From the NCBI GenBank assembly GCA_021296315.1, contig JAGWAO010000004.1, positions 1 to 41,135 of the forward strand: 41,135 nt of DNA, written 5' to 3'. Below, in pieces: positions 1,128-40,715 of this stretch. The notes under the pieces were generated by a model that ran no database searches, was not told where the DNA came from, and saw only the letters and a program-made list of their open reading frames with translations. Both the position numbers and the translations under genes were made by a program. Source of the DNA: Acidimicrobiia bacterium. GTDB lineage: Bacteria; Actinomycetota; Acidimicrobiia; Acidimicrobiales; Aldehydirespiratoraceae. Each line of letters opens with the position of its first letter. Position 1 is the stretch's first letter.

Positions 1128-1249
1128 GAACTGGCAGCCGAAAGCGCCAAGAACGGCCCCCGCCGCTGCCAATTCCCGAACAATCCCGGCACGCTCACCG
1201 AACTGGCAGCCGAGAGCGCCAAGAACGGCCCCCGCCGCTGCCAATTCCC
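1128..1249 (+). repeat. Intergenic palindrome pair, period 72 bp
   Basis: Two 50-bp units, 1128-1177 and 1200-1249, start exactly 72 bp apart. Each opens with GAACTGGCAGC and closes with GCTGCCAATTCCC. An inner stem GCC/GGC with loop AAGAAC sits between the arms. The two units differ by about one base. The 22-bp spacer and the flank before unit 1 both end in GCTCACC, so the pair looks like a tandem duplication. They fill the gap between the convergent valS and amine oxidase stops. Confidence 0.9.
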
Positions 1250-1260
1250 GAAGGGACGGC

Positions 1261-2667
1261 TCAGCGGGGCAGATTCTCGATCTGGACGGCCGCCCGCCGC
1301 CCGGACAGGACCGCGCCCTGAACGGTGGACGGGTACTGGCTCTGGGTCGCCTCGCCGGCGAAGAACAGCCTCCCACCGACCGGCTTGGCCAACTCCCGGT
1401 AGCTGGTGAACGAGGCCCCGATCGGGACATAGGAATACGAGCCCCTCGCCCACGGGTCCGAGTTCCAGCGGGTGCTGACCGAGTCGACCGGCTCGGGCAC
1501 GTTGCCGAAGACACCCTCCAGGGCTGCCAGGGCCTGCGCCGTAAGCTCGTCGTCGGTGTACTGCTCGGTCTCGACACCGAAGGTGCCGGGATTGAACATG
1601 GCCAGCACCGGCTGCTGCTGGTACGGGTACAGGTTCAGGGTCTCGGCCCACTGGCCGGGCGGCTCGCCGACGATTCCGATCCACTCGACGTCGGGCTTCC
1701 AGAAGACGTCATCGAACAGCAGGGACGTCCGGTTCAGGACGCCCATGCGCAGAGCGTCGATCGACTCCTGCTTGGAGACCGGCAGCGGCGGCTCGAAGGA
1801 GATCAGACCGCTCTTGAGAATGCCCAGGGGAACGGTGACGATGACCCGGTCGGCCTCGAAGGCCTGGCCCGAGCCGGTGGTCAGCTCCACCTCGTCGCCC
1901 GAGTAGTCGATCCGCTCCACCGCGTGGTCGAGCCGGATGTCCAGACCCTCGGCGAGGACATCGGTGACCTGGCTGTATCCGCCGGGTATCACCACATCCC
2001 CGCCCCGCAGGTCGCTGCCACCCTCCCAGCTCGATATCGACAGATCGCTGATGTCGGCACCGAACTCCTGCTCGAACATGGAGTTCAGGGACTGGCGCCA
2101 GGAGCGGCGGCCGTCGGCATCGAGGCCGTTGACGTCCACGAATTCCTCGAAGACTTCCTGGAGCGACAGATCCGGCCGGGCGTAGGCCATTCGCCAGTAG
2201 ACCCGCCAGAGCTCCTCGTCGGCCGATCCCAGTTCCCGGCCCGTCTGGTCGTAGCGAACCTGGTTGCCGTAGTCAGTCGGGGCCGTGGCAATGTTGTTGC
2301 GTTGAACAATCTCGTAGACGGGGTTGCGGCGGATGCCGTGTATCCACGTCGCCCCCAACTCGACCGGGACGTCGTCGCCGAGCCGTTCTGTCCAGATTCG
2401 CCCGCCGACCCGGTCGCGGGCCTCCAGGATCACGACGTCGTGGAAGCCCCGGACCTGGAGGTCCTGCGCCGCGGCCAGCCCGGCGGCACCGGCGCCGATG
2501 ACCACGATCCGCTCATCGGTCGCGGCCGGAGGGTCACCGGAGCCACGGCCGCTGCAGGCGGCGAGCAGCGGTGCGGCCGCAGCCAGTCCGGCCGCGCTGA
2601 GCCCACCCTTGATGAACCCCCGGCGGGCCAGCCTGTGGCCGGTCACGTTCCCGCCCTGCTCACGCAT
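1261..2667 (-). CDS. Tat-exported flavin amine oxidase, probable lipoprotein
   Basis: FAD-dependent amine oxidase (monoamine/polyamine oxidase superfamily), 468 residues. The N-terminus carries a twin-arginine signal (RRGFIKGG, residues 15-22), a hydrophobic stretch and a lipobox LAAC with Cys38, so the enzyme is predicted to be folded, exported and lipid-anchored. The FAD-binding motif GAGAAG (58-63) is followed by DRVGGRIW, and the C-terminal FAD motif is FFAGEATQSQYPSTVQGA. The ATG at 2667 is chosen because the signal peptide starts there; longer readings run into the kinase gene. The first 8 nt (ATGCGTGA) overlap the histidine kinase stop, so translation is probably coupled. It is the last gene of an operon with a two-component system, which may control it. 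The substrate cannot be told from sequence. Confidence 0.9.
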   Translation of the reverse strand: MREQGGNVTGHRLARRGFIKGGLSAAGLAAAAPLLAACSGRGSGDPPAATDERIVVIGAGAAGLAAAQDLQVRGFHDVVILEARDRVGGRIWTERLGDDVPVELGATWIHGIRRNPVYEIVQRNNIATAPTDYGNQVRYDQTGRELGSADEELWRVYWRMAYARPDLSLQEVFEEFVDVNGLDADGRRSWRQSLNSMFEQEFGADISDLSISSWEGGSDLRGGDVVIPGGYSQVTDVLAEGLDIRLDHAVERIDYSGDEVELTTGSGQAFEADRVIVTVPLGILKSGLISFEPPLPVSKQESIDALRMGVLNRTSLLFDDVFWKPDVEWIGIVGEPPGQWAETLNLYPYQQQPVLAMFNPGTFGVETEQYTDDELTAQALAALEGVFGNVPEPVDSVSTRWNSDPWARGSYSYVPIGASFTSYRELAKPVGGRLFFAGEATQSQYPSTVQGAVLSGRRAAVQIENLPR

Positions 2668-4123
2668 CGCTCCATACCCGCTCGGCCTCCTCGCCGTCGA
2701 TCTCGGGGATCCGAAGACCGATGGCCGCGCCCCCCAGCGGCGACCCGCTCGCCCGGACCTCGCCGCCGTGGACCTCGGCCACCTGGCGCACGATGGCCAG
2801 GCCGAGGCCGGAGCCGGGCCGGTCCCGGTCGGGCTCCATGCGGTAGAAGCGCTCGAAGATGCGCAGGCGCTCGGACTCGGGCACGCCCGGCCCCGCGTCA
2901 TGAACGGTCACCGTGCCCCCGTCCACCACCACCTCTATGGGGCCCTCGTTGCTGAACTTGACCGCGTTGTCCACCAGATTGCGCACCGCTCTGGCCAAGG
3001 CCTCCGGCCGTCCCTCCACCGGCACTCCCCTCTCCACCCGCACCATAATGCCGCGTCCGCTGCGGCGCCGCGCCCGCTGGGCCACCGGCTCGACCACCTC
3101 GACCAGATCGATCAACTGGAGCTGCTCGTCGGCCTGGATGTCGGCGGCCAGATCCACCAACTCGGTCACCAGGTCGGTCAGCTCTCCCAGCTCCGCATCC
3201 ACATCGTCGAGCACCGCGGCCCGCTCGGTGGCCGGCAGTTCGTCGGACCGCCGCATCAGGTCGACGTTGGTGCGCAGGCTGGTCAGCGGGGTGCGCAGTT
3301 CGTGGCCGGCGTCCATCACCAGCCGGTGCTGCTGGCGGCGGCTGGCGGACAGGGCTGCGAGCATGGTCCGGAAGCTGCGGGCCAGGCGTCCCACCTCGCC
3401 CGCCTCCCAGCCCTCCACCGGCAGGTCCACGTCCCCGGTCTCGGCGACCTGCTCGGCCGTCTCCGTCAGCCTGACGATGGGGCGCACCGCCCGCCCGGCC
3501 AGGAACCAGGCCCCGGCCGCGGCCAGAGCCACCGCCAGCGAGCCGAACAGCAGCACCTGCCGGCGGAGATCCTCGATCGCGTTCTCCACCTCGTGCAGGG
3601 GGCGGGCGACCTGGACGAACACTCCGTCGGCGGCCGGCACGGTCATGAGGCGCAGGCTGCGGCCTTCGACGCGGATCGTCTCCATCACGGGACCGCGCCG
3701 CCGGGCCCTCTCCAGGCGGTCCACGTTGGGGACGGTTCCGATGTCGTCGTCGAGGGCGGCGATGACATGGCCCCGGATCACGCCGTCGGCGCCGGTGTCG
3801 AGGTCGGTGACGATCACGCGGGCGTAGGCGTCCAGCGACACCAGCGAGCCGAGCGGATCGGCCCGCAGCAGCGACCCGATCCCCGTCGGGCGCCGACCCA
3901 GGATGTCGGACCAGAAGTCGCCTCGGGGCTTGGCGAACACCAGCGCCGCCCTCTCAAGAAGATCGTGGTCGACTTCCTCGGTCAGCTCCGCCCTCGCCGA
4001 GCGCACTGCGGACCATCCCACCGCGGCCACGGCCACGGTCACCACCGCGGCCACCAGCAGCGCAACCCGAACCCGAAGCGTCACGGATCGACCCGGCTCC
4101 CGCTCACGGGCCGCTCGGGCCAC
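2660..4123 (-). CDS. Sensor histidine kinase (MprB-like architecture)
   Basis: Membrane histidine kinase, 487 residues from the GTG at 4123. Order: TM1 (about 18-38), extracytoplasmic sensor of about 150 residues, TM2 (about 191-209), HAMP linker, HisKA with DAGHELRTPLTS (phospho-accepting His274), then the HATPase_c domain with N box NLVDNAVKF, G1 DAGPGVP, F box RFYR and G2 GSGLGLAIV. It lies 62 bp after the response regulator and overlaps the amine oxidase start by 8 nt. The start is uncertain: a second GTG at 4084 gives a protein beginning VTLRVRVALL, immediately before TM1, and the first 13 residues of the longer form are encoded within a dispersed repeat (4101-4183). The shorter form may be real. 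The layout and DAGHELRTPLTSLRTN match the mycobacterial MprB group, but the signal is unknown. Confidence 0.93.
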   Translation of the reverse strand: MARAAREREPGRSVTLRVRVALLVAAVVTVAVAAVGWSAVRSARAELTEEVDHDLLERAALVFAKPRGDFWSDILGRRPTGIGSLLRADPLGSLVSLDAYARVIVTDLDTGADGVIRGHVIAALDDDIGTVPNVDRLERARRRGPVMETIRVEGRSLRLMTVPAADGVFVQVARPLHEVENAIEDLRRQVLLFGSLAVALAAAGAWFLAGRAVRPIVRLTETAEQVAETGDVDLPVEGWEAGEVGRLARSFRTMLAALSASRRQQHRLVMDAGHELRTPLTSLRTNVDLMRRSDELPATERAAVLDDVDAELGELTDLVTELVDLAADIQADEQLQLIDLVEVVEPVAQRARRRSGRGIMVRVERGVPVEGRPEALARAVRNLVDNAVKFSNEGPIEVVVDGGTVTVHDAGPGVPESERLRIFERFYRMEPDRDRPGSGLGLAIVRQVAEVHGGEVRASGSPLGGAAIGLRIPEIDGEEAERVWSDA

Positions 4124-4183
4124 GGCCTCGCTGAGCGTCTCGCCAGAATCATCACGGATCGCCGCCTACCCGCTCGGCCTCTG
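4101..4183 (-). repeat. Dispersed repeat, copy A (kinase 5' end)
   Basis: On the minus strand this stretch starts CAGAGGCCGAGCGG (4183-4170), has a diverged 36-bp middle, and ends with a 33-bp block (4133-4101) starting CAGCGAGGCCGTGG. The same two blocks occur at 20471-20554 on the plus strand, 37 bp apart, with one mismatch in the 33-bp block. This copy spans the regulator-kinase gap and the first codons of the longer kinase reading. Confidence 0.7.
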
Positions 4184-4185
4184 GC

Positions 4186-4938
4186 TCACGTATCAATCCT
4201 GGCCACGTAGCCGATCCCGCGCACGGTGTGGATGATCCGGGATCCGCCACCGGCTTCGGTCTTGCGGCGCAGGTAGCCGACATACACGTCGAGGGTCTTG
4301 GACTCGGTGTCGAGGGTTCCGGCCCACACGTGCTCGTAGATGTCGCCGCGGCTCAGGACGATGCCGGCATTGCGCACCAGCAGTTCGAGCAGGTCGAACT
4401 CCCTGACCGACATGTCGATGGGCCGGCCCCGTCGAGCCACCAGGCGGCCCTCGACGTCGATCTCAAGATCGCCCAGGCGCAAGACCCCGTCACCGCGTGA
4501 CCGGGCCGCGTTCGTGGCTCTGCGGCCGGCGTGCTCGCCGTCGTCGGCCGCGGCCCGCAGCCGGGCCCGCACCCTGGCCAGCAACTCCTCGATGGCGAAG
4601 GGCTTGACCAGATAGTCGTCGGCGCCGGCGTCGAGCCCCGCTACCCGGTCGTCCACCTCGTGTCGAGCGGTGAGCATGAGGATCTGGGTGTCGCAGCCCT
4701 TCTGGCGCAGCATCCGGCACACGCTGAGACCGTCGGCGTTGGGCATCGACACGTCCAGCACGAGCAGGTCGGGTTGGTGGGACTCGTGAGCGGAGAGCGC
4801 GGCGGCTCCGTCGGGCACGGTCACTACGTCGTATCCCTCCAGCCGCAGGTACCGGTCGAGGGAGTCGCGCACCCGCCGGTCGTCCTCCGCGATGAGGATG
4901 GTGGCCGGAGCCTCGCCGGGTTCTGCGGACTGCACCAT
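4186..4938 (-). CDS. OmpR/PhoB-family response regulator
   Basis: Two-component response regulator, 250 residues. The N-terminal receiver domain has the acidic pair AEDD (18-20), phospho-acceptor Asp62 in LDVSMP, Thr90 in MLTAR and Lys112 in LVKPF. The C-terminal winged helix has the OmpR signatures REFDLLELLVRNAG, VWAG and the recognition-helix region SKTLDVYVGYLRRK, ending RGIGYVARI. ATG 4938 is chosen: GGAG lies 12 nt upstream, while the longer reading needs a TTG at 4965. It is the first gene of an operon with the histidine kinase and the Tat amine oxidase, and is divergent from surE with an 86-bp gap. It most likely responds to the kinase next door. MprA-like in type, but orthology is not shown. 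Confidence 0.94.
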   Translation of the reverse strand: MVQSAEPGEAPATILIAEDDRRVRDSLDRYLRLEGYDVVTVPDGAAALSAHESHQPDLLVLDVSMPNADGLSVCRMLRQKGCDTQILMLTARHEVDDRVAGLDAGADDYLVKPFAIEELLARVRARLRAAADDGEHAGRRATNAARSRGDGVLRLGDLEIDVEGRLVARRGRPIDMSVREFDLLELLVRNAGIVLSRGDIYEHVWAGTLDTESKTLDVYVGYLRRKTEAGGGSRIIHTVRGIGYVARIDT

Positions 4939-5012
4939 CCCATTGTGGCGCTCCAAGGTGAACAACAGGTTAGAAGTTCGCCCGGCTCGCCTTCAGGATG
5001 CACCTGGACAGC

Positions 5013-5018
5013 TAGGGT
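5013..5018 (+). promoter_or_regulatory. Leaderless -10 box of surE
   Basis: TAGGGT lies 6 nt before the GTG start of surE, so transcription would begin at or next to the start codon. No purine-rich ribosome site lies before the GTG. No convincing -35 was seen. Confidence 0.5.
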
Positions 5019-5024
5019 CGCCTG

Positions 5025-5849
5025 GTGCGAATTCTCGTCACCAACGATGACGGCATCGACTCAATCGGGCTGCACGTGCTGGCCCGGGCCATGACCGAGA
5101 TCGGCGATGTGGTGGTGGTCGCCCCGGACAAGGAGTACTCCGGGTACGGCGCGGCCTTCGGTCCCCTGCACCTGATACAGCCCGAGGTGCACCGTTCAAG
5201 CATCGACGGGGTGGACGAGGTGTGGTCCGTCACGGGGCCGCCGGCGTTGTGCGTGATGTTCGGTCGCCTGGACCTGTTCGGGCACTACGACCTCGTGGTG
5301 GCCGGCATCAACCCCGGCGCCAACGTGGGCCGCTCGGTGTATCACTCCGGGACGGTCGGGGCCTGCCTGACGGCCCGCAACGGAGGGGTGAGCGGCGTGG
5401 CCGTGAGCCAGACGGTGGAGTCCTTCGGGGTGGAGGGCCAGGGCTGGGAGGAGATGCTCGCCGATCAGCACTGGGACACGGCCGCCACGGTGGCCGCCGC
5501 CGCGGTGGAGGGACTGGCGGCCGCACTGCCACCTGAGCCGGTGGTGCTCAACATCAACGTCCCCGACCGGGAACTGCATGAGATCAAGGGCTGGAGGCGC
5601 ACCGACGTCGGCATCGAGCCGCCCCGCTCGATGGCGACCGCGCACCTCGAGCCGAGGCCGGGCCACACCGACGCGTTCCGGGTGAAGATGGACTGGGGCG
5701 AGGCCATCGAGCTTCCCTCCTACACCGACGGCGGCGCAGTGATGGACGGATGGGTGTCGGTGGGATGGCTGGGCCGCCTGGAGGCCACTGAACCGGGCTT
5801 CGCCGGGGTCGCGGAAGCCGAGTCCCACCTCGACAAGCTGCTGACCTGA
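5025..5849 (+). CDS. surE: 5'/3'-nucleotidase SurE
   Basis: Metal-dependent survival protein phosphatase that removes phosphate from nucleoside 5'- and 3'-monophosphates, cytoplasmic. The 274-residue product begins MRILVTNDDGIDS, where Asp8 and Asp9 are the metal ligands, followed by the conserved KEYSGYG, the metal-site loop GINPGANVG and SGTVGAC. The length suits the family (about 250-270). The GTG at 5025 is the only start that keeps the conserved MRILVTNDDG N-terminus. The gene appears leaderless. A GC-rich hairpin follows the stop, before the ABC-F gene. Confidence 0.95.
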   Translation: MRILVTNDDGIDSIGLHVLARAMTEIGDVVVVAPDKEYSGYGAAFGPLHLIQPEVHRSSIDGVDEVWSVTGPPALCVMFGRLDLFGHYDLVVAGINPGANVGRSVYHSGTVGACLTARNGGVSGVAVSQTVESFGVEGQGWEEMLADQHWDTAATVAAAAVEGLAAALPPEPVVLNINVPDRELHEIKGWRRTDVGIEPPRSMATAHLEPRPGHTDAFRVKMDWGEAIELPSYTDGGAVMDGWVSVGWLGRLEATEPGFAGVAEAESHLDKLLT

Positions 5850-11291: not shown

Positions 11292-11339
11292 GAATTGGCA
11301 GCCCACAACGCCCAAATGGGATCCCTGCGCTGCCAATTC
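11292..11339 (+). repeat. Intergenic palindrome, single copy with perfect arms
   Basis: 48 bp. Both outer arms are exact (GAATTGGCAGC/GCTGCCAATTC), the only such copy in the window. The inner stem is CCC/GGG with loop AAAT, in place of the GCC/GGC of other copies. It lies between the convergent glycosylase and AlkD-like genes. Confidence 0.88.
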
Positions 11340-12122: not shown

Positions 12123-13340
12123 TCACCCGGTGAAGTCACGAGTGAACAGGCGGTAGGCCAGATTGTCGACACTGACCACCGAGTTCGACAGGATGGCAAC
12201 CCCTTCACCCGTCCCGGGATCGAAGCCGATGAACGAGGCGTAGCCGCCGGTTGCGCCGTTGTGCCACACGAACTCGCGGTCGCCCTCCCTCGCGATGATC
12301 CACCCCAGCGCGATGTCCATGCCCAGCGCCGGCTCCTCCCGCCGGGGCATGCGAGCGAACTCCATCGCCTCTCGCAGGGGCGACTCACGCAGACCGAGAT
12401 TCGCTTCGAGGAAGGTCAGAAGGTCGTTGACGGTAGATCGCAGGGCTCCCGCCCCAGCGAGGACCGCAAGATCCCAATTCGCGGTCGGACGAAGCCTCCC
12501 GTCATGACCGGTGGCCAGGCGATCGCGAAGCGACGGCATCAACTCGACCGCGGTGTCGGACATCTGCAGCGGTCCGAGGATCCGCTCGCGGATGAGCGTC
12601 TCGAAGTCGGTGCCCTCCCCGACGGCGAGAGCGTGGCCCAGCAGGCCGTAGCCAACATTCGAATACTCGACGGCGTCGCCGACGTCGCGACGCAGTTCGT
12701 GGGACGACAGGAAGGCGTACAGATCGTTGGCGGTGTAGTCGGCGTAAGGGTTGGCCGGATCTTCCGGGTCGAAGTTGTCGGGCAGGCGGGGCAGCCCTGA
12801 GCTGTGGGTGGCCAAGTGGCCCAGCGTGATCTCGGCGCCGTTGCGAGTCGGAATCCGCGCCTCGCCGTCGAGAAGGCCCTGCACCGGCGTGTCCAGCCCC
12901 AACTCTTCCCGCGATACCAGATCGGCCAGCAGCGTGGATGTGAGCACCTTCGTGATCGAGCCGATCTCGAAGACAGTGCCCCCATCGGGCTGGGTCGGGT
13001 CGTCTGCGCTGAGTCGTCCGTATCCGACCACAACGCGACCCCCGGCGCCGGTCACGCCGGCCACGACGCCGACGCTCTGCCGGTCGCCGTCCACGAAACC
13101 CGCCAAGAGCTTGCGCATCTGCTCGCTCAGCGTCCCATCATCCTGCCCACTGGGCGTCTCGACATCCGGCCCAGGCTCCGGCGTCTCAACATCCGATCCG
13201 CTGAGTGTCTGAGCATCCGATCCAGACTCCGGCGTCCCAGCATCCGATCCAGACTCCGGCGTCCCAGCATCCGATCCAGACTCCGGCGTCTCAACATCCG
13301 ATCCGCTGAGTGTCTGAGCATCCGGCGCGGCCTCGGTCAC
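12123..13340 (-). CDS. Serine hydrolase, beta-lactamase class C-like, probable lipoprotein
   Basis: Penicillin-binding-protein/beta-lactamase class C fold, 405 residues from the GTG at 13340. Catalytic motifs: SITK (SxxK), EYSNVGYG (YxN) and HNGATGG (HxG). Such proteins may be esterases, D-amino peptidases or beta-lactamases; no drug resistance can be inferred. The N-terminal 65 residues are a low-complexity linker of six 8-9-residue repeats (GSDAGTPES and variants). In the same frame upstream, 13409-13341 encodes a strong lipoprotein signal (TRRALAAGVGLALWCAAC) but with ACG where the start codon should be, preceded by GGAGGGGGG. The true start may therefore be at 13409, making the protein membrane-anchored. 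It lies directly after the MBL hydrolase gene. Confidence 0.87.
   Translation of the reverse strand: MTEAAPDAQTLSGSDVETPESGSDAGTPESGSDAGTPESGSDAQTLSGSDVETPEPGPDVETPSGQDDGTLSEQMRKLLAGFVDGDRQSVGVVAGVTGAGGRVVVGYGRLSADDPTQPDGGTVFEIGSITKVLTSTLLADLVSREELGLDTPVQGLLDGEARIPTRNGAEITLGHLATHSSGLPRLPDNFDPEDPANPYADYTANDLYAFLSSHELRRDVGDAVEYSNVGYGLLGHALAVGEGTDFETLIRERILGPLQMSDTAVELMPSLRDRLATGHDGRLRPTANWDLAVLAGAGALRSTVNDLLTFLEANLGLRESPLREAMEFARMPRREEPALGMDIALGWIIAREGDREFVWHNGATGGYASFIGFDPGTGEGVAILSNSVVSVDNLAYRLFTRDFTG
13149..13304 (-). repeat. 27-bp in-frame tandem repeats (linker)
   Basis: Six tandem units of 24-27 bp encode the GSDxxTPES linker of the serine hydrolase. The units around 13224-13277 are nearly identical, so copy number probably varies between strains. 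Confidence 0.8.
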
Positions 13341-16365: not shown

Positions 16366-16415
16366 GAACTGGCAGCCCAGAACGCCCAAGAGGTCACCCA
16401 CCGCTGCCAATTCCC
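16366..16415 (+). repeat. Intergenic palindrome, single copy
   Basis: 50 bp with arms GAACTGGCAGC/GCTGCCAATTC. The inner stem is weak (CC/GG, loop CAAGA). It lies between two genes on the same strand (pcm and the propeller protein), 19 nt before the GTG of the latter. Confidence 0.85.
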
Positions 16416-21898: not shown

Positions 21899-22296
21899 GC
21901 CTCTACGTGGTCGATGCGTCGGTGGCAGTCGAGTACCTCCTGCGCACGCCCCTCGGGCTGTCGCTCGCCGAGACCATCGAGGACGCCAGACTCGCGGCTC
22001 CCGACCTCATTGACGCTCAGGTCATGTCGGGGCTGCGCCGTGCAGTTCATGCTGGACGCCTCACGGACAAGCGAGCTGTCATGGCGATCGACGCTCTGAC
22101 GCAGTGGCCCGTCAGGCGCATCCCCGGTCGTGCGCTGGCCCCCATGGCGTGGCAGCACCACCGCAACGTCACCGCTTACGACGCCTTCTACGTGGCGGCG
22201 GCAAGCGCGCTGGGCGCCCCGCTGCTCACCGCGGACGGCCGCCTGGCGAGAGCCCCAGGACTCGGCATCACTGTTCAGCACGTTCGACTTGCCTGA
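21895..22296 (+). CDS. vapC: PIN-domain toxin (VapC)
   Basis: 133-residue PIN-domain ribonuclease toxin, partner of the adjacent antitoxin. It begins SLYVVDASVAVEYLL, with the first catalytic Asp and the Glu of VEYLL. Further acidic residues are in YDAFYVAAASALGAPLLTADGRLARAPG, the conserved third and fourth metal-binding positions. VapC toxins cleave tRNA or rRNA; the target here is unknown. GTG 21895 overlaps the antitoxin stop by 4 nt and begins right at the PIN fold; a longer reading from 21796 lies in the antitoxin gene. All key acidic residues look intact, so it is probably active. Confidence 0.9.
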   Translation: MSLYVVDASVAVEYLLRTPLGLSLAETIEDARLAAPDLIDAQVMSGLRRAVHAGRLTDKRAVMAIDALTQWPVRRIPGRALAPMAWQHHRNVTAYDAFYVAAASALGAPLLTADGRLARAPGLGITVQHVRLA

Positions 22297-22407
22297 CTCA
22301 TGCCGTCACGCCTCCGAAATGGGCGAAGCATTGGACACTGGAGGCCCCTTATCGCCACCGATTCGGGACGCTAGGTTGGCGGCGGCGGTCCGTATGAGAG
22401 CCCAGTA

Positions 22408-23187: not shown

Positions 23188-23201
23188 CAAGCCGCGGCAA
23201 C

Positions 23202-23317
23202 GCACCACAAGCGGCAACGCCCTGCGACACAGCCACTCCCGTAGCTTCGTCGCACCGGATCGTGGTCGCCCATGCACCACAAGCGGCAACGCCCTGCGAC
23301 ACAGCCACTCCCGTAGC
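23202..23317 (+). repeat. Two 44-bp direct repeats, period 72 bp
   Basis: 23202-23245 and 23274-23317 are identical 44-bp copies starting GCACCACAAGCGGCAACGCC and ending CCCGTAGC, separated by a unique 28-bp spacer. They are not palindromic and do not match the GAACTGGCAGC family, yet share its 72-bp period. The second copy supplies the first bases of the engB -10 box. Confidence 0.9.
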
Positions 23318-23319
23318 CT
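23314..23319 (+). promoter_or_regulatory. Leaderless -10 box of engB
   Basis: TAGCCT, 6 nt before the ATG at 23326, formed by the last four bases of the second 44-bp repeat plus two unique bases. The first copy ends in a similar TAGCTT (23242-23247), a possible second promoter 72 bp upstream. Confidence 0.45.
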
Positions 23320-23325
23320 GATCGG

Positions 23326-23981: not shown

Positions 23982-24101
23982 GAACTGGCAGCACTATGCC
24001 CCCATGACGTGCGCAATGCTGCCAATCCCGGGGAGGGACGGAACTGCCGTGCGAACTGGAAGCGGCCAGTGCCCGTTCGGGCTTCCTGAGCTGCCAATTC
24101 C
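23982..24101 (+). repeat. Intergenic palindrome pair, period 71 bp
   Basis: Units 23982-24029 and 24053-24101. The first has arms GAACTGGCAGC/GCTGCCAATCCC extended inward by GCAC/GTGC. The second has a mutated left arm (GAACTGGAAGC) but a perfect inner hairpin GCCCG/CGGGC. They lie between convergent engB and aminotransferase genes. Confidence 0.85.
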
Positions 24102-28963: not shown

Positions 28964-29084
28964 GAACTGGCAGCCCAAAGCGCCAAGAACGGCCCCCACC
29001 GCTGCCAATTCCCCGGCCGGGGAAGCGGCTAGCCGGAACTGGCACCCCAGAACGCCAGAGAGGCCCCCACCGCTGCCAATTCCC
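28964..29084 (+). repeat. Intergenic palindrome pair, period 72 bp
   Basis: Units 28964-29013 and 29036-29084 start 72 bp apart. Unit 1 is almost identical to the 1128 unit. Unit 2 has a damaged left arm (GGCACCC for GGCAGCC) but keeps an inner GCC/GGC stem with loop AGAGA. They lie between convergent LLM and IMPDH-like genes. Confidence 0.9.
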
Positions 29085-31914: not shown

Positions 31915-32712
31915 CTAGTCGGCGAAGCCGATACCGCCTCCGACGGCCACGGTCGCCCCGGTGAGGTAGGAGCCGGCGCGGGACGCCAGGTACACGGCGG
32001 CTCCCGCCATGTCGTCGGGCTGACCGATCCTCCCCAACGGGACCATGGCCGCCAGCTCGGCCCGGGCGTCCGGATCGTCGAGGATGAACGCCATCATCTT
32101 CGAGTCGAACGGCCCTGGGGCGATGGCGTTCACCGTGATGTGCTCGCGGGCGAGGCGCTTGGCGAGATGCCGGGTGAGGTGGATGATCCCGGCTTTCGAC
32201 GTCGAGTACGAGTAGGTCTCCATGTCGGGCACCTTGAGCCCGTCCACGGAGGCGACGTTGATCACGCGGGCGGGCGCCTCCGGGCGGGCCGCGGCCCGCA
32301 GCAGGTCGAGCAGCTTCTGGGTGAGGAAGAACGGTCCCCGCACGTTGGTGTCCATCACCTTGTTCCAGCCGTCCACTGGGAACTCGTCCAACCGGGCGCC
32401 CCAGCTGGCCCCCGCATTGTTGACGAGGATGTCGAGCGACTCCCACCGCCGGGCCACCTCCCCGGCGAGCGCCTGGCAGCCCTCGGGCGTGGAGAGGTCG
32501 GCCTGTACGGCCTCGCACGGACCCAGAGCCGACAGGTCCTCGGCGGCCGCGGCGAGCTGGTCGACCTTGCGAGCCGAGACGATCACCCGGCAACCCGCGT
32601 CGAGCAGCCCGCCCGCGATCATGCGGCCGATGCCGCGGCTCCCCCCGGTCACGACGGCCGTCCTGCCGTCCAGTCCGAATAGTTCGGTCAAGCGATCGAC
32701 GTTCATCGGCAT
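31915..32712 (-). CDS. Short-chain dehydrogenase/reductase (FabG-like)
   Basis: Classical SDR, 265 residues. Cofactor motif TGGSRGIG (22-29), NNAG (98-101), catalytic Ser155 in INVASVDG, Tyr169 and Lys173 in YSYSTSKAG. C-terminal YLASRAGSYLTGATVAVGGGI is usual for FabG-type oxidoreductases. ARKVDQ after the second strand and Arg47 in VSARK suggest NADP preference. Start ATG 32712 has GAAGG 9 nt upstream; an ATG at 32760 is possible, but longer readings run into palindromic repeats. It converges on the P450 gene with only 11 bp between, and its 5' side faces the GDPD lipoprotein gene across a 320-bp gap. Confidence 0.9.
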   Translation of the reverse strand: MPMNVDRLTELFGLDGRTAVVTGGSRGIGRMIAGGLLDAGCRVIVSARKVDQLAAAAEDLSALGPCEAVQADLSTPEGCQALAGEVARRWESLDILVNNAGASWGARLDEFPVDGWNKVMDTNVRGPFFLTQKLLDLLRAAARPEAPARVINVASVDGLKVPDMETYSYSTSKAGIIHLTRHLAKRLAREHITVNAIAPGPFDSKMMAFILDDPDARAELAAMVPLGRIGQPDDMAGAAVYLASRAGSYLTGATVAVGGGIGFAD

Positions 32713-32810
32713 AGTGACGATCCTTCGGCAGTCGGCGGGAAGGGCGCTCTGAGCGGTCATCTTGGCAGATGAAGACCGGTCCCACGCACGGTGGCGACCC
32801 CAGACCTCGC

Positions 32811-33003
32811 GAACTGGCAGCCACCAACGCCCAAACCGGCACCCACCGCTGCCAATCCCCGCCGCAGCACCACTCCACACCCGAACTGGCAGCCACCAAC
32901 GCCCAAACCGGCACCCACCGCTGCCAATCCCCGCCGCAGCACCACCCCACACCCGAACTGGCAGCACAAGGCACGCATACCGCGCAAGACGCTGCCGATT
33001 CCC
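32811..33003 (+). repeat. Intergenic palindrome triplet, period 72 bp
   Basis: Units 32811-32859, 32883-32931 and 32955-33003, each starting exactly 72 bp after the last. Units 1 and 2 and the following spacers are almost identical (one spacer change), so a recent 72-bp duplication. Unit 3 keeps the outer arms (GAACTGGCAGC, GCTGCCGATTC) but has a different core, GCACGCATACCG, which matches the units after the GDPD gene. The array occupies most of the 32713-33032 divergent gap. Apart from it and a -10 box at 33019, I see nothing else in this 320-bp gap. Confidence 0.9.
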
Positions 33004-33032: not shown

Positions 33033-34361
33033 ATGACTCTGACCCGTCGGAGAGGGACCGCGGCTCGGAAACGGAACCCGGGCGCGGCGCGGGCCGCGAG
33101 CCTCACCGCGACTGCCGCCCTCCTCGCCGCGGCCTGCGGCGGAGGCTCCGGCGATGGCGGGGAGCCGCAGGAAGCCGCTCCGGCCCCGTCGGAGTCGACC
33201 TCCTCGACCGCCGCCCCGGCCCCGTCGGAGTCGACCACCTCGACCGCCGCCCCGGCCCCGTCGGAGTCGACCACCTCGACCGCCGCCCCGGCCACGACCA
33301 CGAGCCCGCCGGCGACGACGGCCGCACCCGCCACGGCGTCGACCTCCACTACAGCTGCCACCACGACAACGGCTGCTCCGACCACGACGGTTGCTCCCAC
33401 GACCACGACGGTTGCTCCCACGACCACGACCACCACCACGGTGGTGCCGCGGCCGGAGGTCTCCACAGTCGAGGCGCTGATCGCGCTCGACCGCCCGCTG
33501 GTGATCGCCCATGCCGGCGGCGACCAGGACTACCCCCACTCCACCCTGTACGCGTACACCCAGTCCGCTCTCTCCGGCTCCGACATCCTCGAACTAGACG
33601 TGCAACTAACCGCCGACGGGGTCCTGATCGTCCAGCACGACGACACCGTCGACCGCACCACGGAGGCCTCCGGTCCGGTCAATGCGCTGACCCTGGACGA
33701 GATCCAGGCCCTCGACAACGCCCATTGGTTCGTGGCGGGCTTCTGGGGCGACCAGACCCGGCCCGATTCCGAGTACGTGTTCCGGGGGGTGCGGACCGGC
33801 GCCGTCGAACCGCCGGAGGGCTTCGGGCCCGACGACTTCCGGGTGGCGACGTTCCGCGAGGTGGCTGAGCGGTTCCCCCATCACGTCCTCGATGTGGAGA
33901 TCAAGCTCCAGCGGGGCCCCGACGGCGAGGAGGTCCTCGCTACCGGCATGGCCGCGGCCGAGGTGCTGGCGGCCGAGATCGCGGAACTGCGCCGGGAGGA
34001 CTCGGTGATCGTGGCCTGCTTCAACGACGAGGTGCTGGAGGCCCTCGGCGACCTGGCCCCGTCAGTGGCGACCACCCCCGGCGAGGCCGCTCTGCTGGGC
34101 TGGTTCGCGGCAGGCCAGGCTCTGGATCAGCGCGTCTCGGTTGTGCAGGTTCCCTTCACCTACCAGGGGGTCCCGGTGGTGACGGCCGACACCGTGGCCC
34201 GGGTGCACGACGAGGGTCGGGAAGTGTGGGTGTGGCTGAGCGGGACCGACGTGGTGGAGACCCGGGAGTTCTACGCCGAGCTGTTCGACCTGGGTGTGGA
34301 CGGCGTGATTGCAGGGAGACCCGCGGAGGCGGCAGCGGCTCTGGCCGACATCATGGGCTAG
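33033..34361 (+). CDS. Glycerophosphodiester phosphodiesterase, lipoprotein with Thr/Pro linker
   Basis: 442-residue GDPD-family hydrolase, predicted to be exported and lipid-anchored. Signal: RRRGTAARKR, hydrophobic ASLTATAALL and lipobox LAAAC. A linker of about 110 residues follows, made of three 12-residue APAPSEST repeats and long Thr/Val/Pro runs, a wall-spanning or glycosylated stalk. The catalytic domain starts at PLVIAHAGGDQDYPHST, then DILELDVQLTADGVLIVQHDDTVDRTT (metal Glu-x-Asp and catalytic HD), DVEIKLQ, and VDGVIAG at the end. The usual HRG and PEN motifs read HAGG and PHS, so the group differs from canonical enzymes but keeps the metal ligands. Start ATG 33033. Inverted palindromes of one subfamily stand on both sides of the gene. 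Confidence 0.88.
   Translation: MTLTRRRGTAARKRNPGAARAASLTATAALLAAACGGGSGDGGEPQEAAPAPSESTSSTAAPAPSESTTSTAAPAPSESTTSTAAPATTTSPPATTAAPATASTSTTAATTTTAAPTTTVAPTTTTVAPTTTTTTTVVPRPEVSTVEALIALDRPLVIAHAGGDQDYPHSTLYAYTQSALSGSDILELDVQLTADGVLIVQHDDTVDRTTEASGPVNALTLDEIQALDNAHWFVAGFWGDQTRPDSEYVFRGVRTGAVEPPEGFGPDDFRVATFREVAERFPHHVLDVEIKLQRGPDGEEVLATGMAAAEVLAAEIAELRREDSVIVACFNDEVLEALGDLAPSVATTPGEAALLGWFAAGQALDQRVSVVQVPFTYQGVPVVTADTVARVHDEGREVWVWLSGTDVVETREFYAELFDLGVDGVIAGRPAEAAAALADIMG
33177..33284 (+). repeat. 36-bp in-frame tandem repeats, three copies
   Basis: 33177-33212, 33213-33248 and 33249-33284 encode APAPSESTTSTA-type units of the linker. Copies 2 and 3 are identical in DNA, which points to recent slippage. 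A shorter Thr/Val/Pro-rich repeat follows to about 33450. Confidence 0.85.
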
Positions 34362-34371: not shown

Positions 34372-34489
34372 GGGAAACGGCAGGTCTTGCACGGCATGCG
34401 TGCACCTTGCTGCCAGTTCAGTCGTGGGGAAGCAGACGTAGGGGAATGGCAGGTCTTGCACGGTATGCGTGCACCTTGCTGCCAGTTCA
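34372..34489 (-). repeat. Intergenic palindrome pair in reverse orientation, period 70 bp
   Basis: Units 34372-34419 and 34442-34489, read on the minus strand as GAACTGGCAGC with an inner stem TGCACG/CGTGCA (unit 2 loop CATAC) and closing in CTGCC. Each is followed by AGTCGTGGGG. Their core matches the third unit before the gene (32955-33003). They lie between convergent GDPD and rlmB genes. Confidence 0.88.
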
Positions 34490-36635: not shown

Positions 36636-36646
36636 GGGCCGCTGGT

Positions 36647-37375
36647 ATGCCCGACACCACCCCTACGCCCGACACTGCATCCGAAGCGGTCGACCGCGCC
36701 ATCGGGACGACCCCCGAGGAGCTCCGGGAGGCCCTGCGCTCCACGATCCTCTTCGCCGACCTCGACGACGAGCAGATCGACCACATCGCGTCCGCAGGAA
36801 CGGTGCTGTCGCTACAGCGGAATGTCGTGCTGTTCGACGAGGGGGCCGAGCCCCACGAGTTCTACCTGGTGATGGCCGGGCGGATCGCCATAGCCCAGGA
36901 ATCGGAGGACGGGCGGGAGTCGCTGCTGGCCCTGATGGGTCCGGGCGAACTGTTCGGCGAACTGGGATTCCTCGACGGCCAGACCCGCTCGGCCCAGGCC
37001 CGGGCCCTGGAGGAGTCTGAGGTGCTGGTCGTGCCCTACGCGCAGTTGCGGTTGCTCTACGAGAACCATCCGGCGGCGCTGTGGAGTGCGGTGCAGCTCC
37101 TGGCCCGGAGGTTGCGAGCGACGGATCGGGCGCTGTCGGACACAGTGTTCCTTGACGTGATGGGGCGCACCGCCAAGCGTCTGCTGGAGATGGCGGGCGA
37201 CGAGGACGAGTTCGAGATGCCCCTCACCCAGGAGGAGCTCGCTTCTATGGTGGGCGCCAGCCGCGAGCGGGTCAACAAGGCGATCCACGCCTTCGTCAGG
37301 CTGGGCTGGATCACCCACGACCACCGCCACTACCGGATCACCAACCGCAAGAACCTCACCCTCCGCGCCCGCTAA
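36647..37375 (+). CDS. Crp/Fnr-family transcription regulator
   Basis: 242-residue regulator. A cyclic-nucleotide-binding beta-roll (about 35-150) contains GRIAIAQESEDGRESLLALMGPGELFGELGFLDGQTRSAQARAL; FGELGFLDGQTRSAQA matches the cAMP-binding phosphate cassette (Gly-Glu and Arg-Ser). The C-terminal helix-turn-helix is PLTQEELASMVGASRERVNKAIHAFVRLGWI. It resembles mycobacterial Crp (Rv3676) in order and length; whether cAMP is the ligand is an inference. A 30-residue Thr/Pro/Asp-rich N-terminal extension precedes the domain. ATG 36647 is preferred to GTG 36632, which lies inside the -10 box. It is convergent with meaB, with only 19 bp between the genes. Confidence 0.9.
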   Translation: MPDTTPTPDTASEAVDRAIGTTPEELREALRSTILFADLDDEQIDHIASAGTVLSLQRNVVLFDEGAEPHEFYLVMAGRIAIAQESEDGRESLLALMGPGELFGELGFLDGQTRSAQARALEESEVLVVPYAQLRLLYENHPAALWSAVQLLARRLRATDRALSDTVFLDVMGRTAKRLLEMAGDEDEFEMPLTQEELASMVGASRERVNKAIHAFVRLGWITHDHRHYRITNRKNLTLRAR

Positions 37376-37394
37376 GGACCGGGGACCTGCAAGC

Positions 37395-38354
37395 TCAGGA
37401 CTGCGACAGGAGTTGCTCGACGGCGGCTTCGGGGGTGATCTGGCCCTGCTCGACGGCGTGCTCCAGCTCGCTCCGGCGTTCGGCGGTGCCGGGCTGCGCC
37501 TCGAACTGCTCGACCAGTCGGCGCTCCAGCAGCACCCGCATCCACGCCAGACGACCCCGGGCCCGGCGTTGGGCCAGAGCGCCGGAGGTGTCGAGGGCTC
37601 GACGGTGCTCGACGATGCAGTCCCACAGCTCGTCCACGCCCGCGCCGGTCGCGGCCGAGACCGTCATCACCTCCGGCGGTCCCCCCTCGCCCGTCGGGGC
37701 CAGCAGGGGCAAGGCCCGACGGAACTCGGCTGCGGCCAGCCGGGCCGCCCGCTCGTTGTCGCCGTCGGCCTTGTTCACGACGACGACATCGGCCAACTCC
37801 AGCAGGCCCCTCTTGACTGCCTGCAGCTCGTCGCCGGCACCGGCCAGCGCCAGCACGCAGAGGCAGTCGACCGAGGCGTGCACGGCCGCCTCCGACTGGC
37901 CGACCCCCATCGTCTCGACCAGCACCACGTCGTAGCCGGCCGCCTCCAGGACGGCGATCGCATGAGGGGTCGTGCTGGTCACACCGCCGAGCATCCCCGC
38001 CGACGGCGACGGCCGGATGAAGGCCTTCTCGTCGGCCGAGAGGGTAGCCATGCGGGACTTGTCGCCCAGGATCGATCCGCCGGTAACCATGCTCGAGGGA
38101 TCGACGGCCAGCACCCCGACCCGGTGGCCGGCACCGGTCAGCCGGGTGCCCAGAGCGTCGATGAGCGTCGACTTGCCCGCGCCGGGCACGCCGCTGATGC
38201 CCACCCGGTTGGCTCCACCCGCGTGGGGCAGGAGCTGCGAGAGCAGTTCCTGGGCGAGGCGGCGGTCGTCGGGGCGGGTCGACTCCACCAGGGTGATGGC
38301 GCGACCGATGGCAGTTCGGTCCCCCGCCAGCACAGCCGCGATCAGGTCATCCAT
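37395..38354 (-). CDS. meaB: Methylmalonyl-CoA mutase-associated GTPase MeaB
   Basis: G3E-family P-loop GTPase that guards and repairs methylmalonyl-CoA mutase by controlling adenosylcobalamin loading, about 319 residues. P loop GISGVPGAGKST, Asp/Ser region VLAVDPSSMVTGGSILGDKSRM, ETMGVGQSE (G3-type) and VVNKAD (G4). The C-terminal helices end in EQGQITPEAAVEQLLSQS, a typical MeaB tail. ATG 38354 follows GGTGGGGGA by 4 nt; GTG 38366 is a possible start. It lies 93 bp after the mutase on the same strand, as expected for an operon. Since that mutase is frameshifted, this gene may lack its client unless another copy exists. Confidence 0.94.
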   Translation of the reverse strand: MDDLIAAVLAGDRTAIGRAITLVESTRPDDRRLAQELLSQLLPHAGGANRVGISGVPGAGKSTLIDALGTRLTGAGHRVGVLAVDPSSMVTGGSILGDKSRMATLSADEKAFIRPSPSAGMLGGVTSTTPHAIAVLEAAGYDVVLVETMGVGQSEAAVHASVDCLCVLALAGAGDELQAVKRGLLELADVVVVNKADGDNERAARLAAAEFRRALPLLAPTGEGGPPEVMTVSAATGAGVDELWDCIVEHRRALDTSGALAQRRARGRLAWMRVLLERRLVEQFEAQPGTAERRSELEHAVEQGQITPEAAVEQLLSQS

Positions 38355-38447
38355 GTCGTCCCCCACCGGAATCGACGCAAGAAACGACCGTACAGGGGGT
38401 CAACTGCATCAATGGCGCGACACGGGCACCCACCAGCAGCCGCGGAC

Positions 38448-40630
38448 TCACACTGACAGGTGCTCCAGCAGTTCGGCGGCGGCCTCGGAGATCACGGTGC
38501 CGGGGCGGTAGACCGCCAGCGCGCCGGCCGCCAGCAGCTCGTCGACGTCGGCGGCGGGAACGACCCCGCCGACCACGATGGCGATGTCGTCCCGGCCCAG
38601 GTCGGCAAGCTCGCCCCGCAGCTGGGGCACGAGCGTGAGATGGCCCGCGGCCAGCGTCGATACCCCGACCACGTGCACGTCGGCCTCCACAGCCTGGCGG
38701 GCCACTTCGGCGGGGGTGGCGAACAGCGGTCCGACATCCACGTCGAATCCGAGGTCGGCGAAGGCGGTCGCGATCACCTTCTGGCCCCGGTCGTGACCGT
38801 CCTGCCCCACCTTCGCCACCAGGATCCGGGGGCGCCGGCCGTGCCGGCCGGCGAACCCGTCCACCCGGGCCCGCACGGCGTCGATGTCCAGGTCGCTGCG
38901 GCCCGGACCGCTGCTGCCCGACTCGCTGCTGCCCGGACCGGAACCCACTGATCGGGCCTCCTCGCGGTACACGCCCTCCACTGCCCTGATCTCGGCCACA
39001 TGACGACCGTAGACGGTTTCGAGGGCGTCGCTGATCTCTCCCACGGTTGCACAGGCCCGGGCGGCGTCGATCGACAGGGCCAGCAGGTTGCCCCGGCCAC
39101 CGCTCGCGGCGCCGGCCAGTGCCTCCAGGGCCGCCCGCAGGGGGGCGGGGTCCCGCTCGGCCCGCAGCTGCTCGAGCCGGGCGATCTGCCGCCGGCGGAC
39201 GTCGGCATTGTCGATGCGGCGGACCTCCACCGGCGCGCCCGCGCCGTCCTCGACCCGGTAGCGGTTCACGCCGACCACGGCCTGACGGCCCGAGTCGATG
39301 CGGGCCTGGGTCCGGGCCGCGGCCTCCTCGATCCGGAGCTTGGGAAGGCCGGTGGAGATGGCCGCGGCCATCCCGCCCAGCTCCTCGACCTCACCGATGT
39401 GGGCCCAGGCCCGCTCGGCCAGCAGCTTGGTGAGCCGCTCCACGTGGTAGCTGCCGCCCCACGGGTCCACGGTGCGGGTGATGCCCGACTCGTGCTGGAG
39501 GAACAGCTGCGTGTTGCGGGCGATGCGGGCCGAGAAGTCGGAGGGCAGGGCCAGCGCCTCGTCGAAGGCGTTGGTGTGCAGCGACTGGGTATGGCCCTGG
39601 GTGGCCGCCATGGCCTCGACGCAGGTGCGGACCACGTTGTTGTAGGGGTCCTGGGCGGTGAGGCTCCAGCCGCTGGTCTGGCAGTGGGTCCGCAGGCACA
39701 GCGAGCGAGGATCGTGGGGGTCGAACCGGCTCATGAGCCGGGTCCACAGCAGCCGGGCGGCCCGCAGCTTGGCCACCTCCATGAAGAAGTTCATGCCCAC
39801 GCACCAGAAGAAGCTGAGCCGGGGCGCGAACTCGTCAATGCCCAGCCCCGCCTCCAGCCCGGCCCGGGCGTACTCCACGCCGTCGGCGAGGGTGTAGGCC
39901 AGTTCGATGTCGAGGGTGGCTCCCGCCTCCTGCATGTGGTATCCGGAGACCGAGATCGAGTTGAACCGGTGAAGGCGATGATGTCGGCCACGATCCGCAT
40001 CGACGGCGCCGGCGGGTAGATGAACGTGTTGCGGACCATGAACTCCTTGAGGATGTCGTTCTGGATGGTCCCGGCGAGCTGCTCGGGCTTCACGCCCTGC
40101 TCCTCCGCGGCCACCACGTAGAGGGCCAGCACCGGCAGCACCGCGCCGTTCATGGTCATCGACACCGTCATCTCGTCGAGCGGTATGCCGTCGAACAGGA
40201 TCCGCATGTCGAGGATCGAGTCGATGGCCACCCCGGCCATGCCCACGTCGCCGGCCACCCTCGGGTTGTCGGAGTCGTAGCCGCGGTGGGTGGGCAGATC
40301 GAAGGCGACCGACAGGCCCCGCTGGCCCGCGGCCAGGTTGCGGCGGTAGAAGGCGTTGGACTCCTCGGCAGTGGAGAACCCCGCGTACTGGCGGATCGTC
40401 CAGGGCCGGGTCACGTACATCGTGGGATACGGCCCCCGCACGAACGGCGGCAGACCCGGGTAGCTGGACACGAAGTCGGCGCCCTCGAGGTCGTCGGGGC
40501 CGGCCAGGGGCGGCACGGAGATGCCCTCGGGCGTCTCGAACACCGGGCCGCCGGTGGGTGCTGCAGCCGGGCGGTCCGCAGCGTCGCCGTCGCGCAGCTC
40601 GACCCGCGAGAAGTCTGGGATCGTGGTCAC
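38448..40630 (-). pseudogene. Methylmalonyl-CoA mutase large subunit, frameshifted
   Basis: Adenosylcobalamin mutase converting methylmalonyl-CoA to succinyl-CoA, split over two frames. The 5' part (40630 to about 39966) reads through [26 protein letters not shown], with the Tyr and Arg typical of methylmalonyl- rather than isobutyryl-CoA mutases, and [18 protein letters not shown] to [10 protein letters not shown]. The other frame resumes with [26 protein letters not shown] and continues to the B12 domain ([12 protein letters not shown], the DxHxxG motif with the lower axial His, and [10 protein letters not shown]). At 39966-39967 only GG separates ACC and TTC, where relatives have about six codons; 16 nt are probably missing. 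Restoring them gives about 733 codons, the normal length. A sequencing or assembly error is possible. The B12 half alone (38448-39935) could not catalyse the reaction. Confidence 0.9.
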
Positions 40631-40666
40631 GGCCCGGCCTAGCCTAGTTGCCCCGCTGCCCCACCC

Positions 40667-40715
40667 GAATTGTCAGCCCACAGCTCCCAATAGGGCACCC
40701 ACCGCTGCCAATTCC
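40667..40715 (+). repeat. Intergenic palindrome, single copy
   Basis: 49 bp with arms GAATTGTCAGC/GCTGCCAATTC (one mismatch) and an inner stem CCC/GGG, loop AATA, as in the 11292 copy. It lies between two minus-strand genes, upstream of the mutase start. Confidence 0.85.

What the first reader, a model, noticed from the sequence alone, without database searches (positions are those of the whole stretch)
1128..40715. A dense family of nested-hairpin intergenic repeats, single or in 70-72-bp-period arrays
Fourteen full units of 48-50 bp occur at eight intergenic loci in 41 kb (1128, 1200; 11292; 16366; 23982, 24053; 28964, 29036; 32811, 32883, 32955; 34372, 34442; 40667), and a fifteenth starts at 41128. 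All share outer arms GAACTGGCAGC and GCTGCCAATTC. In all five arrays the units start 72, 71, 72, 72/72 and 70 bp apart, even where the spacer sequence differs. I know of no described element with this pattern. It resembles REP/BIME elements in size and location, but the fixed period is unusual and suggests either repeated duplication of one 72-bp unit or selection for the spacing, about seven helical turns.
Basis: seen in the sequence. Interest (0 to 1): 0.78.

Follow-up and report, generated by a model that had tools for sequence, protein, structure and literature searches.

The report
Palindromic repeat arrays with 24-bp spacers
A genus of probably sponge-associated bacteria carries a family of tiny hairpin-forming DNA repeats, copied as exact 47-48-letter units into gaps between genes and often lined up head to tail 24 letters apart; they resemble known mobile repeats, but the enzyme that moves those was not found.

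Summary
All 14 units are in the window; the own genome (2.66 Mb, 86% complete) has at least 106 units in 69 clusters. The family looks confined to this genus: covariance-model matches in 13 of 16 genus genomes, strict-pattern matches in 0 of 295 other genomes of the class. In 1.39 Mb from the genus (262 units) the constant is not the period but the gap: 24 bp in 73 of 105 neighbour pairs, 23-25 in 96, for both 47- and 48-bp units.

The copied unit is exact: near-identical units at different loci share no more flank than unrelated ones, and there is no general target duplication. The 11-bp arms come in pairs (143 of 148 in the own genome). Neighbours are direct repeats (97 direct, 0 inverted, 8 unclear). 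About a quarter of arrays show growth by local duplication of unit plus 24 bp. At orthologous sites arms stay about 96% identical while loops and flanks decay.

Best reading: a REPIN-like non-autonomous palindromic element, moved in trans by an unidentified enzyme. It fails REPIN membership: no GTAG/CGTC tag, no Y1 transposase in 16 genus genomes. A replication-strand polarity is strong overall but not detectable among recent copies. What sets 24 bp is unknown.

The parts
1128..1175 (+). unit, class A, 48 bp; array 1 (spacer 24 bp)
1200..1247 (+). unit, class A; array 1
11292..11339 (+). single unit, class A, both arms GAATTGGCAGC
16366..16413 (+). single unit, class A
23982..24028 (+). unit, 47 bp, class B-like; array with the next unit
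24053..24100 (+). unit, class A-like, divergent; orientation uncertain
28964..29011 (+). unit, class A; array 3' of the IMP dehydrogenase-like gene; by reading, the spacer contains a copy of that gene's stop codon and downstream flank
29036..29082 (+). unit, class A, 47 bp, one changed base in the left arm
32811..32858 (+). unit, class A; array of three
32883..32930 (+). unit, class A, identical to the one before (spacer differs by one base)
32955..33001 (+). unit, class B, third in the array
34374..34419 (-). unit, class B, 46 bp as re-fitted, degenerate outer arm
34443..34488 (-). unit, class B, 46 bp as re-fitted
40667..40714 (+). single unit, class A
41128..41135 (+). first 8 bases of a further unit, cut by the scaffold gap at 41136

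Best explanation
A genus-specific family of REPIN-like, non-autonomous palindromic DNA elements. The element is 47 or 48 bp: two near-invariant inverted 11-bp ends (GAAYTGGCAGC) around a 25- or 26-bp middle that forms a second, inner hairpin. SHOWN by comparison: copies at different loci agree over that unit and not beyond it, with no general target duplication; they lie between genes in most clusters (60 of 69 in the own genome); their ends come in pairs; close relatives differ by presence, absence and number at a site; about a quarter of arrays carry traces of duplication of the unit plus 24 bp; arms at a site persist while loop and flanks are replaced. INFERRED: an enzyme supplied in trans recognises the paired ends, probably folded as a single-stranded hairpin, and copies or moves the unit; it is not a Y1 transposase of the RAYT/IS200 kind. 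INFERRED: arrays grow because the structured unit promotes replication-slippage duplications, whose reach (24 bp beyond the unit) is set by the size of the folded unit or of a protein bound to it; units then turn over within arrays, and perhaps exchange between them.
For: Exact unit: 86 pairs of units with loop identity 0.96 or more, at different loci of one genome, match in the flanks on average no better than 3312 unrelated pairs, from the first base on; the exceptions are two comparisons between G015 contigs C145 and C141, which share whole flanks and look like one duplicated or doubly assembled place. Paired ends: in G000, 143 of the 148 exact arms of the whole genome lie in units found here; in all fetched DNA 431 of 435. 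Spread: 13 of 16 genus genomes, pattern counts 0-122, 0 of 295 other genomes of the class by a strict pattern. The IMPDH-gene tree, rooted at its midpoint, puts the poor genomes G004, G011 and G003 outside the rich clade, and empty G002 inside it. Filled and empty sites in relatives. Local duplication: spacer = start of right flank + end of left flank at 0.6 identity or more in 17 of 67 arrays, 1.6 expected; 9 at 0.7 or more, 0.1 expected, with split points from 1 to 21 among these 9. Control: with units masked, 27 tandem repeats of period 40-120 have scattered periods; of the four with period 72, three lie in G000 coding DNA and one (G015) was not assessed. Structure: outer helix 90% paired, inner 67%; 53 two-sided cells against 36 in shuffles, 0 of 500 reaching it; loops fold at -6.7 against -3.7 kcal/mol shuffled.
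Against: No enzyme is identified; none of five recombinase/transposase families tested follows the element's distribution. 50 of 67 arrays show no trace of the duplication model at 0.6; their spacers are unexplained. The 15 neighbour pairs with clearly different loops still have spacers of 21-25 bp, 7 of them exactly 24, which local duplication alone does not give. An intergenic 58-bp doublet 72 bp apart without the arms stands at window 23195-23324. Arms keep about 96% identity at orthologous sites while loops and flanks fall to about 55%, which also fits host selection; units are detected by their arms, so that figure is biased upward. Inner-stem pairing in the 25-bp loops is no better than column make-up gives, and two of the five measures are reached by 28 and 52 of 500 shuffles.
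Confidence: 0.6

Rival explanations
1. Host-functional cis-elements: pairs of 11-bp sites bound by a host protein (nucleoid, gyrase- or looping-type) or RNA hairpins at transcript ends, kept by selection, with the 24-bp gap selected for phase.
For: Arms about 96% identical at orthologous sites at all distances while loops and 20-bp flanks decay to 0.55 and 0.53; 25 of 26 orthologous site groups keep one orientation; enrichment between convergent genes in the fetched G000 DNA, 17 clusters per 31 such gaps against 51 per 184 others, P 0.006, with gaps of 60 bp or more from my own gene calls, so rough.
Against: 0 to 2 pattern matches in 4 of 16 genus genomes (G002, G004, G011, G003), although the IMPDH gene next to one array is in all 16; pattern counts from 0 to 122; found in tandem, convergent and divergent contexts, with no link of orientation to local gene strand; few T in the 12 bases on either side, no Rfam match in the window. 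Arm identity is biased by detection through the arms.
Confidence: 0.2
2. Ruler insertion: an integrase-like enzyme places each new unit 24 bp from an existing one, as in CRISPR or casposon-type integration.
For: 24-bp gap for both unit lengths; neighbours with clearly different loops keep 21-25 bp (15 of 15); 50 of 67 arrays show no flank copy.
Against: 17 of 67 arrays show local duplication; the same spacers recur inside some arrays and at orthologous loci; cas genes were not searched; arrays found here hold 1 to 5 units at many loci.
Confidence: 0.12
3. Integron-like attC sites or other site-specific recombination sites that exchange gene cassettes.
For: Hairpin with conserved outer and variable inner part between genes; a ~900-bp segment inverted between G014 and G009 next to units, and a ~1-kb segment between units in G009 missing in G014.
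Against: Arrays have only 24-bp gaps, not genes, between units; the attC consensus as recalled (RYYYAAC/GTTRRRY) is not seen in the arms; tyrosine recombinases are in all 16 genus genomes including those without the element. Homologous recombination between copies can explain the rearrangements.
Confidence: 0.03
4. Replication-strand-polar sequence (KOPS-like) or insertion biased by replication direction.
For: Unit orientation follows local GC skew: 95 of 123 arrays, P 2e-9 (orthologous sites counted more than once); contigs 53 to 16; G000 alone 41 of 51, P 2e-5; not gene strand, P 0.78.
Against: Near-identical, hence recent, copies of one genome show no detectable polarity: 52 of 94 pairs at loop identity 0.92 and 27 of 49 at 0.96, where 61 and 32 would be expected if they were as polar as the whole set (one-sided P 0.04 and 0.10), while pairs at 0.80 do, 162 of 259. 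Slow compositional drift of the unpaired bases is the simpler reading, but the test has modest power and pairs are not independent; I raised this odds from 0.05 to 0.08 on that recount.
Confidence: 0.08

Closest known systems
REPINs (REP doublets forming hairpins; Bertels and Rainey 2011, PMC3116915, passages read)
   Same: Two highly conserved inverted ends around a less conserved middle; hairpin in ssDNA or mRNA; doublets over-represented; extragenic; tandem arrays with set distances also described (GI to GIII 112 bp, GIII to GI 72 bp).
   Different: Here ends are 11 bp and the unit 47-48 bp; no GTAG tag; no RAYT match in 16 genus genomes; single ends nearly absent; one preferred 24-bp gap between whole units in direct arrays.
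CGTC-tagged REPs (PMC3733652, passages read)
   Same: REP-like palindromes that seem to lack a dedicated transposase.
   Different: No CGTC tag here; those are predominantly HH dimers and rarely clustered; the word stem 'actinobacteri' does not occur in that main text.
BIMEs (PMC2817692, passages read)
   Same: Regularly spaced palindromes in extragenic clusters.
   Different: BIMEs have alternating orientation; here 97 neighbour pairs direct, 0 inverted, 8 unclear.
MITEs
   Same: Short, terminal inverted repeats, non-autonomous, intergenic.
   Different: No general target-site duplication; 47-48 bp is far below usual MITE size (recalled).
MIRU-type mycobacterial repeats (recalled, not read)
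   Same: Actinobacterial intergenic direct tandem repeats of 50-100 bp.
   Different: MIRUs are not known to me as palindromic units with a separate constant spacer.

Membership tests
REP/REPIN | inverted pair of highly conserved ends around a variable hairpin-forming middle | tested here: met
REP/REPIN | GTAG or CGTC tetranucleotide tag at one end | tested here: not met
   no such consensus in the 12 printed positions on either side of 245 units nor in the arms
REP/REPIN | RAYT (Y1 tyrosine transposase) in the genome | tested here: not met
   PF01797 in 0 of 16 genus genomes (1 of 31 searched, G042 of another family); E. coli control found; genus genomes are 84-96% complete
REP/REPIN | mostly extragenic, many copies per genome | tested here: met
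   60 of 69 G000 clusters do not overlap a predicted gene by more than 5 bp; at least 106 units in G000
BIME | alternating orientation of neighbouring palindromes | tested here: not met
   97 direct, 0 inverted, 8 unclear
MITE | terminal inverted repeats | tested here: met
MITE | target-site duplication | tested here: not met
   5 of 144 clusters have a flank direct repeat scoring 10 or more, 0.6 expected; their offsets differ
CRISPR array | unique spacers and cas genes | tested here: inconclusive
   spacers recur within some arrays; cas genes not searched
integron attC | R'/R'' core sites and an IntI integrase | not tested
   consensus recalled only; IntI not told apart from other tyrosine recombinases
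described RNA family | match to an Rfam model | tested here: not met
   0 matches in the window at gathering score

The most novel reading that the evidence does not exclude
A new kind of hairpin element in which an unknown, non-Y1 enzyme recognises fixed 11-bp ends, copies the unit alone, and can replace one unit by a unit of another class in place, so that the sites, the ends and the 24-bp gap are inherited while everything between and around them turns over.
Probability: 0.2. Interest if true: 0.75.

Novelty: new variant of a known kind. Interest (0 to 1): 0.5.

Why it matters
REP-like repeats in other bacteria are tied to Y1 transposases, or are orphans of unknown mobiliser. This family gives a clade-restricted case in 16 related genomes with empty sites, singles, doubles and longer arrays, an exact unit boundary and a preferred gap, so the mobiliser and the array-forming step can be sought by comparison. 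It also gives a practical caution: a strong apparent replication-strand polarity was not detectable among recent copies.

Tried and rejected
Terminators or promoters: the scanner was not run; rejected as the main reading because units lie in all gene contexts and T is rare next to them. Known RNA: no Rfam match in the window. tRNA: none in the window. Target-site duplication: rejected as a rule. A flank-carrying mobile unit of 72 bp: rejected, since recent copies share no flank beyond chance, two G015 contig comparisons apart. Insertion polarity with replication: seen, not detectable in recent copies, with modest power. Machinery by presence/absence: Y1_Tnp 0 of 16; IS110 over cut-off in 2 of 16 (G007, G002), 7 of 16 at E 0.001; PF07282 1 of 16 (G013); reverse transcriptase 2 of 16 (G005, G002); tyrosine recombinase 16 of 16; none fits. 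A 6-kb segment of G009 with a unit near each end, absent in G014, showed no transposase among the ORFs I read (no family search done). Viral contigs: 6 hits to a short pattern, about what chance gives by my own estimate, with unlike interiors. One Ktedonobacteraceae hit (L173) stands alone in the listing. Model R1 was built with a stem shifted by one column (my error); R2 is correct; G000 units are R1 hits re-fitted to the arms, and an arm scan of the fetched G000 DNA also gives 106. In some searches the window's own units dropped out by a script error; one search includes them.
Full report
CHECK. Fourteen units stand in the window within 2 bp of the stated places. The arm with up to one mismatch occurs 28 times against 1.37 expected. 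The 15th runs into a scaffold gap that begins at contig base 41136. The window is contig C62, bases 1-41135, of a 2.66-Mb, 83-contig, 86% complete genome.

WHOLE GENOME. The exact arm occurs 148 times, the same pattern read backwards 5 times. A covariance model gives 147 hits, 106 distinct units in 69 clusters closer than 250 bp: 37 single, 27 double, 5 triple. Nine of 69 clusters lie in a predicted gene or overlap one by more than 5 bp; gene calls are from my own simple codon-usage caller. Contexts are 41 tandem, 17 convergent, 10 divergent and 1 open. In 39 tandem cases the median distance to the upstream stop is 18 bp and to the downstream start 26 bp, not significantly different (P 0.17), so nearness to stop codons is a tendency in a compact genome, not a rule.

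DISTRIBUTION. With the corrected model R2, 13 of 16 genus genomes have matches, 1 of 21 other genomes of the family (G035, E 0.0036), 0 of 24 of the order (counts there are capped at 100 per genome and filters were strict). The pattern TGGCAGC-N25/26-GCTGCCA gives 122 (G015), 95, 82, 80, 64 (G000), 59, 53, 50, 43, 33, 27, 9 (G001), 2 (G003), 1 (G004, unlike interior), 0 (G002), 0 (G011); the backward control is 0 except 1 each in G001 and G011. A stricter pattern is in 0 of 295 other genomes drawn from the class. Named hits are Acidimicrobiaceae or Acidimicrobiia metagenome bins such as SB0677_bin_3, APA_bin_7, RHO3_bin_18, plus one Ktedonobacteraceae contig (listing cut at its limit); that these are sponge metagenomes is recalled, not shown by a call. 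A one-gene tree (IMPDH DNA), rooted at its midpoint, places G004+G011 outside, then G003, then G000, then the rest, with G002 inside the rich clade. One amplification after G003 and a loss in G002 is the simplest history, on one gene, with middling support at two of the forks.

ANATOMY. In 1.39 Mb from 12 genomes (11 with units; the 60 kb of G003 had none) there are 262 units, 181 with no arm mismatch; the reversed DNA gives 0. Clusters: 64 single, 62 double, 19 triple, 3 of four, 1 of five. These stretches were mostly chosen because they hold units. Loops are 25 or 26 bp in 254 of 262. Three loop classes recur by eye: A (CGCCCAAA..GGC), B (TGCACG-CATAC-CGTGCA) and C (GCCCC-TATA-GGGGC). On 72 G000 units the outer helix is 90% paired but hardly varies; the inner helix is 67% paired, with 53 two-sided cells in the whole structure against 36 in shuffles (0 of 500 reach it; two other measures are reached by 28 and 52 of 500). 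Related sequences can give this without structure, and within 25-bp loops pairing is no better than column make-up. Loops do fold better than shuffled ones (mean z -1.8).

SPACING. Of 105 neighbour pairs free of N and less than 260 bp apart, the spacer is 24 bp in 73 and 23-25 in 96; periods are 71 (49) and 72 (39). The gap is 24 for 47-bp units (43 of 59) and for 48-bp units (29 of 43). So the gap, not the period, is constant. Pairs with loop identity under 0.7 have 7 of 15 at exactly 24 and all within 21-25. Neighbours are direct in 97, inverted in 0, unclear in 8.

WHERE THE GAP COMES FROM. If [left part + unit + right part] is duplicated, the spacer must equal the start of the right flank plus the end of the left flank. 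At 0.6 identity this holds in 17 of 67 arrays, 1.6 expected; at 0.7 in 9, 0.1 expected, with split points from 1 to 21. At the IMPDH site the G000 spacer, by reading, repeats the stop codon and flank of the gene. Fifty of 67 arrays show no such trace at 0.6. With units masked, 27 tandem repeats of period 40-120 in the same DNA have scattered periods; of the four with period 72, three are in coding DNA of G000 and one (G015) was not assessed. Against this control stands one armless intergenic doublet of period 72 at window 23195-23324, below that search's score.

WHAT MOVES. Pairs of near-identical units at different loci of one genome match in the flanks no better than unrelated pairs (86 pairs at 0.96, 81 at 0.90-0.96; 3312 unrelated), apart from two comparisons of G015 contigs C145 and C141 that share whole flanks. 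The moved or copied unit is thus the 47-48 bp. Flank direct repeats are rare (5 of 144). Close relatives show filled and empty sites: G009 has a doublet where G014 has none, 136 bp longer; G009 has three units where G014 has one. One search lists 84 of 237 comparisons as filled versus empty; filled pairs are counted from both sides, and some 'empty' ones hold a unit at the edge of the interval (for example window 23982 against G005).

SITES OUTLIVE THEIR SEQUENCE. Twenty-six site groups are filled in two or more genomes; 25 keep one orientation, the exception being of unclear orientation in G000; 15 hold more than one loop class. Arms stay 95-96% identical while loops go 0.86, 0.63, 0.55 and 20-bp flanks 0.78, 0.61, 0.53 as gene flanks fall from 92% or more to under 86% (random flanks 0.39, random loops 0.47). 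G000 and G012 share the outer flanks at the IMPDH site but carry class A and class B. Mixed arrays such as A-A-A-B-A exist, so differential loss from mixed arrays can explain part of this without exchange.

A POLARITY OF OLD COPIES. Orientation follows GC skew (95 of 123; 41 of 51 in G000) and not gene strand. Recent copies show no detectable polarity (52 of 94; 27 of 49), where 61 and 32 would be expected if they were as polar as the rest (one-sided P 0.04 and 0.10). Since orientation is read from A/C-rich unpaired bases, drift under strand-biased mutation is the simpler cause; the test has modest power. The same drift may add to the uniform orientation at shared sites.

MACHINERY AND LITERATURE. 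No tested family follows the element. Reading: PMC2817692, PMC3116915 and PMC3733652, passages only; other papers were seen only in listings. No title or abstract start listed describes this family (one search found no paper); those lists show 3 to 15 papers each, often of many more, from a library of open-licence papers only.

VERDICT. A REPIN-like, clade-restricted palindromic element without the REPIN hallmarks of tag and Y1 enzyme, with an unusually strict 24-bp gap in direct arrays. Spread as an exact unit, and local duplication in about a quarter of arrays, are supported by comparison; the enzyme and the cause of 24 bp are not known.

Noticed in passing
G003:C9 (L113-L115) and G000 loci; e.g. 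position 47497 of the reversed 60-kb stretch: A second dispersed palindrome-rich repeat, about 150-180 bp by eye, with core GTGAGCGCAGCGAACAAGAGCG: 191 exact cores in G003, 88 in G000, 25-89 in the other carriers, 0 in G004 and G011. One copy sits in G003 at a site where other species have the 24-bp-gap arrays.
   Followed up: partly
window 31916-32804 and G014:C87:30108-31004 versus G009:C19:38966-38068: A ~900-bp segment holding a short-chain dehydrogenase gene lies inverted between species, next to units of the family.
   Followed up: partly
G009:C19:52333-53365: About 1 kb between two units in G009 is missing in G014, which has one unit with the left flank of the one and the right flank of the other: recombination between direct copies, or gain.
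   Followed up: partly
G009:C19:13611-19703: A 6-kb segment with a unit near each end, absent in G014, with a sigma-factor-like ORF and RCC1-like repeat ORFs by reading.
   Followed up: partly
window 23195-23324: Two copies of a 58-bp sequence 72 bp apart between two genes, without the family's arms; a 38-base core of it was found nowhere else in the fetched DNA by a seeded search.
   Followed up: partly
window 13153-13324 and 33174-33296: Tandem repeats of 27/51 bp and 36 bp.
   Followed up: no
G000:C9:21665-22198 and 22264-22311: A strong tyrosine recombinase (PF00589) match lies 65 bp from a unit; probably chance.
   Followed up: no
window end at 41136, and arrays in G000, G007, G010, G015: Runs of N sit inside or at the ends of several arrays, so array lengths may be too low.
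   Followed up: no
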